A DNA stretch of 21,662 bases from a virus: the IMG/VR virus record IMGVR_UViG_3300048772_000007, positions 1 through 21,662 of that record, one strand, 5' to 3'. The position numbers and the translations under genes are program-made. Positions 1-8,091 of this stretch are shown one piece after another. How positions within the stretch are numbered: the stretch's first letter is position 1; the number at the start of each line of letters is the position of its first letter. The notes under the pieces are model-generated. The model searched no databases and was not told the origin of the DNA. It saw only the letters and a list, made by a program, of their open reading frames with translations.

Positions 1-1016
1 ACGGGACGAAGCTGGTAGCCGTACAGCGCACAGACCTAGACCTTGCCGACCCGCGTACCCGGCAGTTGGCCGTGGCCGACAATCGTTCCTCGCAAGTCAG
101 CTTGGATTGGGATACGGAGACGCTCAAGGGGCTAGTGGAGGACGGCGTGGATCTGGCCCCGTTCTGGACAGCGGATGAGTTGGCTGCGATGTGGCCGCAG
201 ACCGTGGACCTGCTCACGGATGAGGACGATGTGCCGCCCGTGCCAGTGGAGCCAGTAAGCAAGCTAGGCGACTTGTACATCCTAGGCAATCACAGGTTGT
301 TGTGCGGCGATTCTACCGTGCTGGCGGACGTGGAGAGGCTGATGGGCGGGGCGAAGGCTGACATGGTGTTTACAGACCCGCCGTACAATGTCGCAGTCTG
401 TAGTGGAGACCATAACCCGCAGGGGCTCACCTACGGCAAGGGCAAGCGTATTCTAAACGATTCCATGCCCGATGCCGAGTTCCATCAATTTCTCGTAGAC
501 TCGTTTACCTCTATGTCGATGGTAATAAAGGACGGCGCAACGGTTTATGTCACCCACGCGGATACAGAAGGAATCAACTTTCGCACGGCCTTTATTGGGG
601 CCGGATTCATGCTCAAGCAATGCTTGATATGGGCAAAACAGCAGTTTGTATTCGGGCGTTCTGACTACCACTGGCAGCATGAGCCGATATTGTACGGCTG
701 GAAGGCTGGTGCGGCGCATACGTTCTATGGTGAGCGCAATCAAGGGACAGTATGGAACATCGACCGTCCTATGCGCTCAGAGATGGAACACCCTACACAG
801 AAGCCGGTTGCTCTGGTCGAAAAGGCGATAGGGAACAGCAGCAAGAGCGGTGATATCCTGTTTGAACCATTCGGCGGTTCCGGCTCAACCCTCATAGCCT
901 GCGAGAAAACCGGAAGGCGCTGCTATATGATGGAACTATCGCCCGCGTATACCGATGTAATTTGCAAGCGTTGGGAGCAGGCGACAGGCAAGAAGGCGGT
1001 GCTGAGTGCCGGATAG
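1..1016 (+). CDS. ParB-like / beta-class DNA adenine (N6 or N4) methyltransferase, 5'-truncated
   Basis: The frame is open from the left edge (first full codon at base 3), so the true start lies outside the window. A TTG at 66 falls inside conserved-looking protein and is unlikely to be the start. The first ~60 codons resemble the end of a ParB-like nuclease domain (NRSSQVSLDWD, the 'adNrs...WD' pattern). The catalytic motif IV is DPPY at nt 375-386. The AdoMet-binding motif FEPFGGSGST follows at nt 861-890, preceded by HPTQKPVALVEKA. DPPY before the glycine-rich motif is the beta-class order. It would methylate DNA on an exocyclic amine; such ParB-methylase fusions commonly sit next to phage terminases. 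Self-protection or pac-site modification is inference. It overlaps the terminase small subunit by 11 bases. Base specificity cannot be read from the sequence. Confidence 0.9.
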   Translation, partial: GTKLVAVQRTDLDLADPRTRQLAVADNRSSQVSLDWDTETLKGLVEDGVDLAPFWTADELAAMWPQTVDLLTDEDDVPPVPVEPVSKLGDLYILGNHRLLCGDSTVLADVERLMGGAKADMVFTDPPYNVAVCSGDHNPQGLTYGKGKRILNDSMPDAEFHQFLVDSFTSMSMVIKDGATVYVTHADTEGINFRTAFIGAGFMLKQCLIWAKQQFVFGRSDYHWQHEPILYGWKAGAAHTFYGERNQGTVWNIDRPMRSEMEHPTQKPVALVEKAIGNSSKSGDILFEPFGGSGSTLIACEKTGRRCYMMELSPAYTDVICKRWEQATGKKAVLSAG

Positions 1017-4240: not shown

Positions 4241-5065
4241 GTGCCAGACTTCCACCGGCCAATGCGTATTGAGCTTGAATACCGCCGCGCCCTGAATGCC
4301 CTCATGCAGTCTTGGCTCAAGATGGTTCCTGCTGGGTCAGACCTCGAAGCGATATTTTCCTACCTTGGCAACGGCGGTGGTGAGCGCGTCATACAAGCCT
4401 CTGAACGGCTGGCGCGGGGCATGGTGACGGCTACAGCAGTCCAGAACGCGGTATCGTGGCGTGACGCGGCCCGGAAATCTACGCAGGGAGCACGAATCTA
4501 TGACCTGCTCAAACGTGAGATGGACGGACCTGTAGGGGCGCAGATGCGCGAACTGGTCAAGACTCACGCTGCCCTTATCAGAACCGTTCCGCAGGACGTT
4601 GCCCAGGACATAGCTTCGCAGATTGCTACACGCCAGATGCGCGGAGAGCGAGCGGAGACTATCGCAAGGGACATACGGCGGCGTATCCCTGAGATTACGA
4701 AGAGCCGGGTAGCAATGCTGGCCCGGACTGAGGTATCCAGCACGGCTACATCTATCAGCGAGGCGCGGGCCGCACACCTGTCACTTCCCTGCTATGAGTG
4801 GCTGTCGAGCAAGGATAGGCGCGTCCGGCCCTCACACCGGCTCATGGACCATGTGATTGTGTTCTGGTCAGACCCACCCGCGCCAGAGGCATTGGCCGGA
4901 ATAAGGTCGAAACTCGGCCACTACCAGGCCGGGAAGGTTCCCAACTGCCGCTGTGATGCTAACGTGATTGTGGATTTGGGCCAGATTACATTTCCCGCAA
5001 AGGTGTACCACGATGGCAAGATTGAGCGTATGGGCCGAGCAAAGTTCTTAAATCTGTACCAATGA
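4241..5065 (+). CDS. Minor head / head morphogenesis protein (Mu gpF / SPP1 gp7-like)
   Basis: This 274-residue protein starts at GTG 4241, one base after the portal stop. The C-terminal half carries the full Mu F-like pattern: ARTEVSSTAT (R162, E164), KDRRVRPSH (D192 to H199) and PNCRCD (C236, C238). The family sits inside the capsid beside the portal and helps head assembly or DNA ejection. The N-terminal 130 residues are helical. Location immediately after the portal is the usual one. It ends where the ordinary head module is interrupted: the next standard head gene (protease) begins 3 kb downstream, after an accessory cassette. Confidence 0.88.
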   Translation: MPDFHRPMRIELEYRRALNALMQSWLKMVPAGSDLEAIFSYLGNGGGERVIQASERLARGMVTATAVQNAVSWRDAARKSTQGARIYDLLKREMDGPVGAQMRELVKTHAALIRTVPQDVAQDIASQIATRQMRGERAETIARDIRRRIPEITKSRVAMLARTEVSSTATSISEARAAHLSLPCYEWLSSKDRRVRPSHRLMDHVIVFWSDPPAPEALAGIRSKLGHYQAGKVPNCRCDANVIVDLGQITFPAKVYHDGKIERMGRAKFLNLYQ

Positions 5066-5088
5066 AAGGAGACGCGAAGAGCCAGAGC

Positions 5089-5121
5089 ACACGGGGCCGT
5101 CCTTCGTGGCGGCTTTCGTGT
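5089..5121 (+). other. Strong RNA hairpin after the head morphogenesis gene
   Basis: The arms ACACGGGGCCGTC (5089-5101) and GGCGGCTTTCGTGT (5108-5121) pair over 13 positions, including several G-U pairs and one bulged C, around a 6-base loop. It lies 24 bases after the stop of the head morphogenesis gene. There is no T-run behind it, so it is not a standard intrinsic terminator. It could slow transcription, protect the mRNA 3' end or separate the head operon from the cassette; these roles are inference. Confidence 0.4.
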
Positions 5122-5542
5122 CTTAGGCATAGGGGCGGCTTCCCTTTGGGGTAAGGGGTAAGTCTCTTACTTAGTATGACTCTCAGGTCTGGAATTCAAG
5201 GACACAGTTTCGTATTGGAAGGCTTGCGCCTCACCCCATTGCGACCAGGACGTAGCCGCCTTTGCGCAGATCAAGTACCGCGCCCGGAGCCTGGATTTCT
5301 CTGTGAACTGGATTCATCGGTGCCAATGCCCGTCCCTGTCGTACTCAAGCGGCCCGTTGATTATGGGAAAGAGTGCCGCGAACTCCCCGAAACACTTGCG
5401 CGTCTCTGTCATACCTAAACAGTTGCAACCCTATCACAATATGCGATATACTTCAATTGCGGGGTGAGATTGATGAACTTGCCCCTCGCGTCATGCCTAG
5501 ACACCTGCCGCGAAACCACCCCGCAGCCTTTTAATTTCCCCC

Positions 5543-5573
5543 TTGACAATACAGATACAGACCGTGATACAGT
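5543..5573 (+). promoter_or_regulatory. Predicted promoter of the accessory cassette (leaderless geometry)
   Basis: A perfect -35 box TTGACA lies at 5543-5548. The best -10 candidate is TACAGT (5568-5573, spacing 19), with GATACA (5566-5571, spacing 17) as a weaker alternative. The downstream ATG at 5580 begins six bases after TACAGT, leaving no room for a leader or Shine-Dalgarno sequence, so transcription would start at or next to the start codon. It would drive the five-gene cassette independently of the late head genes. Confidence 0.5.
5549..5572 (+). repeat. Three ATACAG repeats inside the cassette promoter
   Basis: ATACAG occurs at 5549-5554, 5555-5560 and 5567-5572, a 6-base unit with one position in the array replaced by ACCGTG. 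The array fills the space between the -35 and -10 boxes, where a bound protein would block RNA polymerase. A ribbon-helix-helix-like gene lies 280 bases downstream in the same unit, and that family often binds short tandem operators. Auto-regulation is inference. Confidence 0.4.
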
Positions 5574-5579
5574 ATTCCC

Positions 5580-5861
5580 ATGAGTAAAACCACGAAACAA
5601 ACCCCGAAGTCTCAGTTGTTTGCCGAGATCGTTGCCCGGCAGACGCAAGTCGCAGCCATCGAAGCCAAAGAGCGTAAGATTCTGGCGCTGAAACAGAAGC
5701 AGGTCCGGCTTGAAGTGGAGCGCGCATTGCTTGTCGCAATTGATAACTATCTCTCTCTCGGACCACTCATCGGCTCTCTTGATGAATTTACTGTTACTCA
5801 TTGTTTGGCCTCAGCGGGTGCGCTACTTGAGCGCATCGTGAAAGAGCAATGTCATGCGTAG
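5580..5861 (+). CDS. Small helical/coiled-coil protein of unknown function
   Basis: This 93-residue protein was not recognised. Residues ~10-55 form a long charged helix with heptad-like spacing (QTQVAAIEAKERKILALKQ and on), and the C-terminal third is a more hydrophobic helical segment. There is no signal peptide or clear membrane segment. It is the first gene of the accessory cassette. It begins at ATG 5580 directly behind a predicted promoter, with no Shine-Dalgarno site, implying leaderless translation. Its stop overlaps the next gene by eight bases. It could be a regulatory partner or structural accessory protein, but nothing in the sequence decides this. Confidence 0.65.
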   Translation: MSKTTKQTPKSQLFAEIVARQTQVAAIEAKERKILALKQKQVRLEVERALLVAIDNYLSLGPLIGSLDEFTVTHCLASAGALLERIVKEQCHA

Positions 5862-6000
5862 AGTTGGCACCGTTGTAGTAATCCGCGTGAATGACGATAT
5901 GCTGGCCGTCGCCCGCAAGATGGCCGAGGCGCAAAAGAAGCCGCTCCGTACCCTGCTCAGGGAGATTATCGAGGATGTGTTGAAAGAGGCAGAGAAGTGA
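5854..6000 (+). CDS. Ribbon-helix-helix-like small protein
   Basis: This 48-residue protein starts at ATG 5854, eight bases inside the preceding gene. It fits a ribbon-helix-helix fold: a short beta strand with alternating residues (VVVIRVNDD, residues 7-15), helix 1 (LAVARKMAEAQ), a turn (KKPL) and helix 2 (RTLLREIIEDVLKEAEK). Arc/MetJ-type proteins of this size dimerise through the strand and bind short DNA repeats as repressors. The ATACAG array upstream is a candidate target. Its stop overlaps the GTG of the superinfection-immunity gene by four bases. The identification rests on pattern and length only. Confidence 0.6.
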   Translation: MRRVGTVVVIRVNDDMLAVARKMAEAQKKPLRTLLREIIEDVLKEAEK

Positions 6001-6242
6001 GCGATTCAGATAGTCTTTTCCCTGTTTTCGCTGGCATTGTTGCAGTAGTCGGGGCCGTATTCCTTTACTGGCTACCAACAATTATTGCTTGGCGGCGCGA
6101 CCATAGCAACACATTGTCTATCGGTGTGACCAATCTTTTCTTTGGTTGGACCATCATTGGCTGGTTATTCGCTCTGATTTGGGCCACAACGGATAATGTG
6201 AGGCGCTATGGCCGTTACGCCGATTCTAATTCTCTCCGATAA
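5997..6242 (+). CDS. Superinfection immunity protein (Imm_superinfect family)
   Basis: This 81-residue inner-membrane protein has two predicted transmembrane helices (residues ~8-31 and ~42-63). The family pattern is clear: LYWLPTIIAWRRDHSNT followed by NLFFGWTIIGWLFALIWA. It matches the family of T4 Imm, which blocks entry of DNA from a second infecting phage. The start is GTG 5997, overlapping the previous stop (GTGA). The final ~12 codons overlap the glycosyltransferase start by 35 bases. The expected role is exclusion of related phages while this phage or prophage occupies the cell. The family assignment is strong; which phages it excludes is unknown. Confidence 0.88.
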   Translation: MSDSDSLFPVFAGIVAVVGAVFLYWLPTIIAWRRDHSNTLSIGVTNLFFGWTIIGWLFALIWATTDNVRRYGRYADSNSLR

Positions 6243-7374
6243 CCCCACGGCTAAGACAGGCCTCGCTCGTATAACGCGGGAACTCGCTTTGAGAATCCAT
6301 GAGAACATGAGCGACGTGTTCCGCGTGGCTTGCTTCGGGCCAGGATGGGATGAGACGGTGAGCCTACCGTTTCCTGCATATCCTATTCACAGGATGGAGA
6401 ACTGGATTACGCCTGAACTCCCTGACCGCTGGCGTGAGTTTGCAGGGGATGAGCGCGGTATTCTTCTGGTAATATGGGACGCCAGCCGGTTGCTTTGGTT
6501 GACCGACCCCGCGAAGTATTGCCCCGATCCGTATCTCAGAAACTTCCTACTCCGCAAGCCTTTTGATATTTGGACCTACACCGCTATCGACGCGGAGGGG
6601 CCGAATGGACGGCTCTCTTACCTGCTCCGTGAAGTGCTGAGTAAGTGTAACCGCGTGCTGGCATACAGCGAATGGTCGGCTCGAATCATCGAACGGACCA
6701 TCGGCGGAACGATTGAATCCCTACCACACGGCATTGACACGCAAGTGTGGCGACCGCGAGGGCGCGATAAGGCACGGCGCAAGTTTGGGCAAATTGTCTT
6801 CGATACGGATTTCAGCATCAAGCCAGACCAGTTCGTTATCGGCATGGTTGGAACGAATCAGGCCCGTAAGGACTTCGGTACAGCTATTGCGGCAGCGGCG
6901 GATATTGCCAAAACAAAAGACGTCCTGCTCTGGATTCATACCGACATGATGGAGCGGTTCTGGTCTATCTCATCCCTACTAGTTGACTATGGACTCGAAA
7001 ATCAAGCTGTGGTGACTACCGGGCGATTGACGGATGAGCAGATGACTTGGGCCTACTCCGCTTGCGATGTGACGTTTGGGATTGGATTATCTGAGGGATT
7101 TGGATTTCCGATCTATGAATCTCTCGCTTGTGGCGTGCCTTGTATTCATGGCAACTACGGTGGCGGCGCTGAATGGCTCTCTGCTGAATTCAAGTTTGAG
7201 CCAGTAGCGTTTCGCCCCGAAGGAACATTCTGCTCAATTCGTCCGGTCTATACGCCGCATCAATGGGCGGAAAAGGCGCTTGCGGTTACGGGCGCGACGG
7301 CAAGTCTACCGCCTGAACTTAACTGGAACAATCTATGGCCGCGATGGGATGCGTGGCTTAGAAGGGAATCATGA
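6208..7374 (+). CDS. GT4-type (GT-B fold) glycosyltransferase
   Basis: This 388-residue protein transfers a sugar from an activated nucleotide donor. The N-terminal Rossmann domain begins with ILILSDNPTAKTGLARITREL (residues 6-26), including the glycine loop. PHGIDTQVW lies at 173-181, and the second domain starts at VIGMVGTNQARKDF. The retaining GT4 signature is complete: EGFGFPIYE (E296 and E304, the E-x7-E donor-binding pair), followed by SLACGVPCI. There is no signal peptide or membrane segment, so it is cytoplasmic. It overlaps the superinfection gene by 35 bases and the second glycosyltransferase by four (ATGA). The acceptor cannot be read from sequence; a virion protein, phage DNA or host surface polymer are all possible. 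Confidence 0.85.
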   Translation: MAVTPILILSDNPTAKTGLARITRELALRIHENMSDVFRVACFGPGWDETVSLPFPAYPIHRMENWITPELPDRWREFAGDERGILLVIWDASRLLWLTDPAKYCPDPYLRNFLLRKPFDIWTYTAIDAEGPNGRLSYLLREVLSKCNRVLAYSEWSARIIERTIGGTIESLPHGIDTQVWRPRGRDKARRKFGQIVFDTDFSIKPDQFVIGMVGTNQARKDFGTAIAAAADIAKTKDVLLWIHTDMMERFWSISSLLVDYGLENQAVVTTGRLTDEQMTWAYSACDVTFGIGLSEGFGFPIYESLACGVPCIHGNYGGGAEWLSAEFKFEPVAFRPEGTFCSIRPVYTPHQWAEKALAVTGATASLPPELNWNNLWPRWDAWLRRES

Positions 7375-8015
7375 GCGATTATCAGGCATACTTTCTACAC
7401 GTCAATCGTGAGGACTTGCTGCAACGTGCAGTCGATAGCGCAATAGACTTCGCGCCTAATATGCTCATCATGGACAGCTCTAAGAATGGACTGTCATGGG
7501 ATGCTCCGTGCGAAGTGTGGAGGCCGCACACAGAGCAGTTGTTTGTCCAGAATATCAACTATGCCCTTGCACGCACACGAGCGATGGGTGGCAATATCTG
7601 TATCTGGATGCACTCGGACGCGGTTGCTGCTCCGGGTTCATGTTTGCAACTTCTCGCCGAGGCGCGCCGTCTTAATGCAGCGAACGTAAAATGGGGAATC
7701 CTGTTTACGAACTATGATGCGCTTGTGGCGCTCAATGCAAACTTCATTGACGATGTAGGTTTATACGACCTCACGCTTCCTTGGTATTTCGCAGATGATG
7801 ATCTCTACCGGCGCATTGAACTTGCTGGATATGAGAAGCGCGAGACAGGTATTCAGGTGTTCCATGAGCCAAGCCAAACACTAAATAGCGATGTAAATTT
7901 AGCGTTTCATAATTCAATCACGTTCCCGCTCTACCGCCAATACTACATAGCGAAGTGGGGCGGCGAACCTCATCACGAAACGTATCAGCATCCCTTCAAC
8001 CAAGTAACTAACTAG
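7371..8015 (+). CDS. GT2-like (GT-A fold) glycosyltransferase
   Basis: This 214-residue protein starts at an ATGA overlap with the GT4 gene, indicating coupled expression. The GT-A features are an N-terminal strand-helix unit (YFLHVNREDLLQRAVDSA), a DXD-equivalent WMHSDA (residues 79-84, D83), a WYFADDDLYRRIELAGY segment (138-154) of the 'eD.dl..R...aGy' type, and a FHEPS histidine near 164-168. It is short for family 2 but appears to contain the complete core. With the neighbour it forms a two-enzyme set that could build a disaccharide or act on successive acceptors. It ends the accessory cassette; an 83-base gap with a promoter follows. Confidence 0.72.
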   Translation: MSDYQAYFLHVNREDLLQRAVDSAIDFAPNMLIMDSSKNGLSWDAPCEVWRPHTEQLFVQNINYALARTRAMGGNICIWMHSDAVAAPGSCLQLLAEARRLNAANVKWGILFTNYDALVALNANFIDDVGLYDLTLPWYFADDDLYRRIELAGYEKRETGIQVFHEPSQTLNSDVNLAFHNSITFPLYRQYYIAKWGGEPHHETYQHPFNQVTN

Positions 8016-8062: not shown

Positions 8063-8091
8063 ATGACCTGAAATTGCGGTTGTGCTATATT
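8063..8091 (+). promoter_or_regulatory. Predicted extended -10 promoter of the protease/capsid unit
   Basis: ATGACC (8063-8068) is a 4/6 match to the -35 box. It is spaced 17 bases from TATATT (8086-8091), which has an extended TGC just upstream (8083-8085). The ATG at 8099 begins eight bases after the -10 box, so transcription would start at or next to it with no leader, and no Shine-Dalgarno sequence is present. An imperfect inverted repeat, AACCGCTATT (8031-8040) against AATTGCGGTT (8072-8081), straddles the promoter and could be an operator. A TTGACA at 8039-8044 has only a poorly spaced -10. Confidence 0.5.

What the first reader, a model, noticed from the sequence alone, without database searches (positions are those of the whole stretch)
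5580..8015. Accessory cassette inserted in the head module: immunity protein plus two glycosyltransferases
Five overlapping genes lie between the Mu F-like gene and the protease, where head genes are normally contiguous. They have their own predicted promoter. The set combines a coiled-coil protein, a ribbon-helix-helix-like protein, a T4 Imm-type exclusion protein, and two sugar transferases of different folds. Tight overlaps (8, 4, 35, 4 bases) suggest one co-regulated unit. The combination could be a compound anti-competitor system: blocking DNA entry of rivals and also altering the cell surface or virion.
Basis: partly seen in the sequence, partly recalled or inferred. Interest (0 to 1): 0.65.

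Follow-up and report, generated by a model that had tools for sequence, protein, structure and literature searches.

The report
Insulated sugar-transferase cassette among phage head genes
An uncultivated phage carries, between two head genes, a separately switched block of accessory genes: a small DNA-binding protein, a superinfection-immunity-family membrane protein and two sugar-adding enzymes, which relatives swap, fuse or delete, suggesting that the phage keeps changing a sugar coat on its particles or its host.

Summary
Five overlapping genes (5580-8015) lie between the Mu F-like gene and the DUF2213 protease: an unknown 93-aa protein, an Arc/RHH-like protein, an Imm_superinfect-family protein, a GT-B GT4 enzyme and a GT-A GT2-like enzyme.

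About 65 related viral loci show more. (1) The slot is an accessory hot spot; distant relatives have MuF and protease 30-150 bp apart. (2) The cassette has its own promoter, TTGACA-N4..7-TAC-N9-TAC(-10)-ATG: 24 distinct copies, always 12 bp between TACs, about none expected by chance. A terminator-like hairpin follows MuF. (3) RHH and GT4 are the constant parts; Imm is optional cargo. (4) GT4 and GT2 are fused in two relatives and deleted in four loci. The window is itself a recombinant: its GT2 is 99-100% DNA-identical to phages whose flanks are ~92% identical. (5) The nearest cultured homologues of both transferases sit together beside the capsid gene of Pontimonas phage phiPsal1.

Best reading: a moron-like, probably RHH-autoregulated unit whose conserved job is a two-step glycosylation, most likely of virion protein, with exclusion as a changeable extra. 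The "compound anti-competitor unit" is only partly supported. Host, acceptor and expression are unproven.

The parts
4241..5065 (+). Mu F-like minor head protein (left flank of the slot)
   Evidence: PF04233 E 6e-15, phrog_324 E 8e-50
5088..5123 (+). terminator-like hairpin after MuF (T-tract degenerate in the window, clearer in relatives such as L009, L172, L178)
   Evidence: same position in most relatives, about 10 bp before the cassette -35 where no other insert is present
5130..5542 (+). extra non-conserved stretch between hairpin and promoter in the window
   Evidence: no alignable counterpart in L005, only about 55% to L002; no family matches to its ORF 5176-5418
5543..5579 (+). cassette promoter: -35 TTGACA 5543-5548, TAC direct repeats 5556-5558 and 5568-5570 (12 bp apart), -10 TACAGT 5568-5573; predicted start of transcription at or next to the ATG (leaderless)
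   Evidence: 24 distinct copies in relatives, spacing always N9, expected about 0
5580..5861 (+). 93-aa protein of unknown family (reader: coiled coil); optional first gene
   Evidence: homologues only in nearest relatives, dN/dS 0.28
5854..6000 (+). RHH/Arc-like 48-aa protein; constant part of the cassette, proposed autoregulator
   Evidence: phrog_6506 E 6e-4; in all complete slots of the clade; residue 9 covaries with operator base
5997..6242 (+). Imm_superinfect family small membrane protein; optional cargo
   Evidence: PF14373 E 1.8e-17, phrog_1039 E 1e-23; 924 phage records with homologues
6208..7374 (+). GT4 glycosyltransferase (GT-B fold); E296 and E304 of the EX7E motif invariant
   Evidence: PF00534 E 1e-11; alignment; fold search
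7371..8015 (+). GT2-like glycosyltransferase (GT-A fold), exchangeable allele
   Evidence: phrog_29879 E 1e-9; fold search; H81 and D83 invariant; 99-100% nt to L005
8063..8098 (+). possible second promoter restarting head-gene transcription at the protease (TG-extended -10 TATATT 8086-8091, ATG 8099)
   Evidence: conserved in L002, L005, L010
8099..9439 (+). DUF2213 head maturation protease (right flank of the slot)
   Evidence: PF09979 E 3e-30, phrog_530 E 3e-33

Best explanation
This is a moron-like accessory unit placed in a hot spot between two head genes and set apart from the late head transcript by a terminator-like hairpin and its own promoter. The small RHH protein, constant in every version, probably represses that promoter by binding the two TAC boxes 12 bp apart that overlap the -10 (inferred). 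The conserved cargo is a pair of soluble sugar transferases working in series (inferred from fusion, co-occurrence and recombination): GT4 adds a sugar to an acceptor, and the GT2-like enzyme, which phages exchange as alleles, extends or caps it, so swapping it would change the exposed glycan. The acceptor is most likely a virion protein, probably of the head. Imm is an optional passenger that would block DNA entry of rivals. Shown: gene content, folds, promoter conservation, hot spot, recombination, fusion, deletions. Inferred: promoter activity, regulation by RHH, order of sugar addition, the acceptor, and any exclusion effect.
For: Hot spot: MuF and protease 30-150 bp apart in L188, L190, L191, L196, but holding different cargo in nearer relatives. 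Promoter: 24 distinct copies with invariant N9 spacing and none at N5-8 or N10-15; 22 observed in a subset against 1 hit in 20 simulations of it; 0 in 252 kb of distant phages; one copy in a 48-kb relative, at the cassette. Hairpin after MuF. RHH residue 9 (V or T) is the only column that perfectly predicts the base before TAC in repeat 1 (A or G), with two concordant switches on the portal tree. GT4-GT2 fused in L002/L030 and L007. Window GT2 is 99-100% nt-identical to L005 (dS 0) while flanking genes have dS 0.25-0.6; L002 holds a 41% allele despite 94% GT4. GT4 and GT2 homologues sit together in unrelated phages, some with Methyltransf_24 (L218, L219, L226, L232, L234, L237, L238). The nearest cultured homologues lie by the major capsid gene in phiPsal1 (both enzymes) and Mae-JY09 (GT4). 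Phage-encoded transferases glycosylate capsid and tail in mycobacteriophages (as cited in PMC12619734 and PMC12363180).
Against: No host, virion protein data or transcript is available. A promoter of its own is not needed for late virion modification and fits host modification equally well. GT4-GT2 islands in several unrelated phages are not visibly inside head modules. The RHH call is weak by sequence, and the residue-base covariation was found after the fact and rests on two switches. The hairpin's T-tract is poor in the window itself. No terminator was found downstream of GT2.
Confidence: 0.45

Rival explanations
1. Host-surface modification: the two transferases modify a cell-wall, LPS or capsule glycan of the infected cell and, together with Imm where present, keep other phages out.
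For: Own promoter independent of late genes; Imm family gene in the same unit in the window, L002 and L009; allele exchange is also typical of surface-modifying genes; serotype conversion by phages is established (PMC11436027).
Against: No flippase or polyprenyl-linked transferase of the gtrABC kind found in the slot (GtrA and GtrB are membrane proteins); in the window the only membrane-type protein is Imm. Imm is absent from most versions. The nearest cultured relatives place the transferases beside the capsid gene.
Confidence: 0.3
2. The promoter is simply a late promoter for the downstream half of the head operon, and the accessory genes are passengers inside an ordinary late transcript.
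For: Cassette genes and head genes share a strand in this clade; no downstream terminator found.
Against: The element is found once in a 48-kb relative and stands before accessory genes in the slot. It also stands before antisense accessory genes in the terminase-portal gap (L176, L180, L186), and the window's protease has its own promoter-like element.
Confidence: 0.12
3. DNA hypermodification: the transferases glycosylate modified bases of the phage genome to escape restriction.
For: Phage transferases do this in some phages (cited in PMC12619734); the window has a DNA methylase at 3-1013.
Against: No TET/JBP (control did not ring, so weak) and no thymidylate synthase-type hydroxymethylase in 11 records, including 48-kb and 46.9-kb relatives. 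Elsewhere the pair sits with sugar-processing genes rather than base-modifying genes.
Confidence: 0.06

Closest known systems
Phage morons / accessory loci (Hendrix, Juhala 2000; definition as quoted in PMC6814406 and PMC7067206)
   Same: Inserted between ordinary phage genes, own promoter, variable in relatives, dispensable cargo.
   Different: Hairpin lies upstream rather than downstream; constant RHH gene and repeat-bearing promoter; no evidence of a lysogenic phase; several cargo genes in one unit.
Mycobacteriophage virion glycosylation (Che8, Corndog, Myrna; Freeman et al. 2023, known here through PMC12363180)
   Same: Phage-encoded transferases, often more than one, that coat the particle.
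   Different: Glycan and acceptor not shown here. The cassette is separately promoted and inside the head module; in the Che8-like phage Maravista the transferases are near the genome end.
Pontimonas phage phiPsal1 MCP-GT4-methyltransferase-GT2 block
   Same: Homologous GT4 (30%) and GT2 (35%), in one block, in the head gene module.
   Different: No RHH, Imm or promoter element of this kind noted; inserted after the capsid gene rather than after MuF.
T4 Imm (PF14373, phrog_1039)
   Same: Small membrane protein family; strong profile match.
   Different: In this clade Imm is optional and mobile; exclusion not tested.
P22/Shigella-phage gtrABC serotype conversion
   Same: Phage glycosyltransferase operon with an exchangeable last transferase.
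   Different: No GtrA flippase or GtrB polyprenyl transferase; enzymes are soluble GT4 and GT2-like.

Membership tests
Moron / accessory locus | inserted between otherwise adjacent phage genes, absent in relatives | tested here: met
   MuF-protease 30-150 bp apart in L188, L190, L191, L196
Moron / accessory locus | own promoter | tested here: met
   conserved element, 24 distinct copies; activity not measured
Moron / accessory locus | own transcription terminator | tested here: inconclusive
   hairpin upstream of the unit; none found downstream of GT2
Moron / accessory locus | expressed in the prophage, not needed for the lytic cycle | not testable with these tools
   no integrase (PF00589) in 11 records and no prophage found in genomes; lifestyle unknown
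Virion glycosylation system | phage-encoded glycosyltransferases with catalytic residues | tested here: met
   invariant EX7E in GT4 and HxD in GT2-like; folds
Virion glycosylation system | glycan attached to capsid or tail protein | not testable with these tools
   needs mass spectrometry of virions; host unknown
T4 Imm superinfection immunity | match to the curated family | tested here: met
   PF14373 63.3 bits against cut-off 27.9
T4 Imm superinfection immunity | blocks DNA entry of superinfecting phage | not testable with these tools
   needs expression and phage challenge
gtrABC serotype-conversion operon | GtrA flippase and GtrB polyprenyl-phosphate transferase | tested here: not met
   no such family among the window's cassette proteins or the slot proteins of relatives that were scanned
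GT4-conflict (PF20706) | match above Pfam cut-off | tested here: not met
   14.6 bits against 26
DNA hypermodification module | base-modifying partner enzyme (TET/JBP or thymidylate-synthase type) | tested here: inconclusive
   none in 11 records; records partly fragments and the TET control did not ring
RHH (Arc/MetJ/RelB) repressor | profile match and strand-helix-helix pattern with Arg in the strand | tested here: inconclusive
   phrog_6506 E 6e-4, invariant I10-R11, no PDB sequence match; no structure model made
RHH (Arc/MetJ/RelB) repressor | binds repeated operator boxes in its own promoter | not testable with these tools
   TAC-N9-TAC boxes and residue 9-base covariation are indirect

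The most novel reading that the evidence does not exclude
A phage-borne plug-in expression system: an RHH repressor and its own repeat-bearing, mostly leaderless promoter form a constant chassis in the head operon that receives interchangeable surface-modifying or exclusion cargo. The GT2 alleles act as an exchangeable, antigen-like sugar switch for the virion in environmental phages, where antibodies are not the selecting force.
Probability: 0.25. Interest if true: 0.75.

Novelty: new variant of a known kind. Interest (0 to 1): 0.5.

Why it matters
Virion glycosylation by phages is known from a few mycobacteriophages. Here a GT4-GT2 (sometimes plus methyltransferase) partnership recurs in many uncultivated phages, sometimes between head genes, with recent allele swaps, fusions and natural deletions. 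That gives ready-made comparisons (transferase-intact against transferase-deleted relatives) to ask what the sugars do outside animals. The conserved promoter with TAC boxes and the RHH gene offers a compact, testable accessory-gene switch that is separate from late transcription.

Tried and rejected
Host search: portal and GT4 alignments found no relative in the genome collection, so no host or prophage could be named. Tyrosine integrase not found. Rejected: gtrABC-type serotype conversion (no flippase or polyprenyl transferase); PADLOC defence systems (none); GT4-conflict family (below cut-off); five genes as a single inherited unit (Imm and the 93-aa gene come and go separately). Leaderless start as a general rule was dropped: L009, L011, L019 and L182 have longer leaders, some with a ribosome site. 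The generic promoter scan did not list the true element because of its 19-bp spacer. One scan of an antisense gene failed on coordinates. The key paper by Freeman et al. is not held, so it is cited second-hand.

Full report
What is there. The window is a 21.7-kb IMG/VR virus contig with a head and contractile-tail gene module. They lie between a Mu F-like gene (PF04233, E 6e-15) and a DUF2213 protease (PF09979, E 3e-30). Gene 3 is a clear Imm_superinfect family member (E 1.8e-17). Gene 4 is a GT4 enzyme and gene 5 a diverged GT2-like enzyme. AlphaFold models matched to the PDB give GT-B (3oy2, BshA) for gene 4 (pLDDT 77.5, moderate) and GT-A (WrtF and others) for gene 5 (pLDDT 85.7), so the two folds do differ. 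Gene 2 resembles Arc-like RHH proteins only weakly (phrog_6506, E 6e-4). Gene 1 has no useful match.

The slot. Two scans of viral contigs brought in about 65 portal-bearing relatives. Mapping the window's genes on them shows that the MuF-protease interval is an accessory hot spot. In distant relatives the two flanking genes are 30-150 bp apart (L188, L190, L191, L196). In the L184 group (57% portal identity) the slot holds an RHH-like gene followed by an Imm gene on the opposite strand and no transferases. In the clade with 65-99% portal identity nearly every slot that can be read through holds RHH followed by GT4. L009 and L013 carry extra GT2-like enzymes or a Methyltransf_24 enzyme. By my count of about 20 distinct complete slots, RHH is in all, intact GT4 in 16, Imm in 3 and the 93-aa gene in 4.

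Own transcription unit. All 24 distinct copies of TTGACA-N4..7-TAC-Nx-TAC-NN-T in the clade have exactly nine bases between the TACs; spacings of 5-8 and 10-15 give none. Simulated sequence gave one hit in 20 runs where 22 were observed, and 252 kb of distant phages gave none. In the window the element is at 5543-5573 and the ATG follows six bases after the -10, which implies a leaderless message; most copies share this, though L009, L011, L019 and L182 have a longer leader. The -35 to -10 distance varies (16-19) while the 12-bp TAC periodicity does not, which points to a bound protein rather than to RNA polymerase alone (inference). The element occurs once in a 48-kb relative, at the cassette. 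It also precedes antisense accessory genes in the terminase-portal gap of L176, L180 and L186. A hairpin stands directly after MuF, usually about 10 bp before the -35, with a better T-tract in L007, L009, L172 and L178 but a poor one in the window. The window's protease has its own promoter-like element.

A likely regulator. RHH proteins such as RelB bind adjacent 12-bp half-sites cooperatively (PMC2812701). Across 16 RHH-promoter pairs, residue 9 (V or T), two before the invariant Arg 11 in the presumed DNA-reading strand, is the only column that perfectly predicts the base before TAC in repeat 1 (A or G). On a portal tree this needs two changes, and both partners change together (the L018 placement has support 87/91). 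This was noticed after the fact, the sequences are related, and L007 and L011 each have one mismatched half-site in repeat 2. I treat it as suggestive.

The transferase pair. In L002/L030 and L007 GT4 and GT2 form one open frame (659 aa in L002). In L174, L179/L181 and L180 different deletions have collapsed both genes, leaving RHH. These are natural knock-outs, so the function is dispensable at least in some settings. The window is a recombinant: its GT4 N-half is 98-100% DNA-identical to L002, its GT4 C-end and GT2 (7048-8007) are 99-100% identical to L005, and the flanks are about 92% identical to both. L002 itself has a 41%-identical GT2 allele. Outside the clade, GT2 relatives sit near GT4 relatives (38-51%), in some cases with Methyltransf_24, sugar aminotransferase or UDP-sugar dehydrogenase genes, in at least seven other phage contigs (L218, L219, L226, L232, L234, L237, L238). 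In L232 the trio lies among head and neck genes. The nearest cultured homologues of both enzymes lie in one block directly downstream of the capsid gene in Pontimonas phage phiPsal1; a GT4 homologue is close to the capsid gene of Microcystis phage Mae-JY09. The cassette promoter is absent from the unrelated loci, so the sugar pair and the promoter-RHH chassis look like separate building blocks.

Mechanism. The conserved output is probably a two-step glycosylation whose last step is exchanged between phages. The acceptor is the open point. A virion protein is favoured (0.45) by repeated placement among head genes, solubility, absence of a flippase, and the mycobacteriophage precedent. Host-surface modification (0.30) is favoured by the independent promoter and the Imm passenger. 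DNA modification (0.06) lacks partner enzymes in 11 records, though the TET control did not ring. Imm remains a plausible exclusion protein, since the T4 member blocks DNA injection (PMC11436027), but here it is optional and mobile.

The claim of one compound anti-competitor unit is only partly supported, because the genes come and go separately.

Limits. The host is unknown, no isolate exists, many loci are fragments, and slot counts rest on my reading of ORF lists. Confidence in the architecture alone (insert, own promoter, RHH-GT4 core, optional Imm) is about 0.85; the lower overall figure reflects the unproven acceptor.

Noticed in passing
L177:2128-3885: The MuF gene of this relative is interrupted by an intein-like insert (Intein_splicing PF14890, E 3e-5, below its cut-off).
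   Followed up: partly
L174, L179, L181, L180 (MuF-protease slot): Different deletions have collapsed GT4 and GT2 while RHH and the promoter remain: natural transferase knock-outs.
   Followed up: yes
L176:2261-, L180:5087-, L186:5611- (minus strand): The same TTGACA-TAC-N9-TAC promoter precedes an antisense ~100-aa gene (MSKQSFES...) in the terminase-portal gap.
   Followed up: partly
L201:4693-4956 (G001:C1:24693-24956): Excisionase-like HTH gene on the opposite strand beside the MCP region of a 48-kb relative in which no tyrosine integrase was found.
   Followed up: no
L203:7500-8560 (G002): Slot of a 57% relative holds antisense RHH-like + Imm genes and a separate antisense excisionase-like HTH gene with a TTGACA promoter-like sequence.
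   Followed up: partly
L002:5778-6345: A second copy of the cassette promoter precedes a 176-aa gene of unknown family just upstream of the main cassette.
   Followed up: no
L034:8001-8225 / L152:10189-10413: Contig ends in a truncated Imm joined to a second partial MuF: recombination junction or assembly chimera.
   Followed up: no
window 3-1013: N6/N4 DNA methylase (PF01555, E 6e-27) at the contig start; another N6/N4 methylase sits in the slot of L024.
   Followed up: no
L241, L242, L247, L248: A GT2-like gene followed by an NAD-epimerase gene in a different group of phages, resembling the epimerase near GT4 in Microcystis phage Mae-JY09.
   Followed up: no
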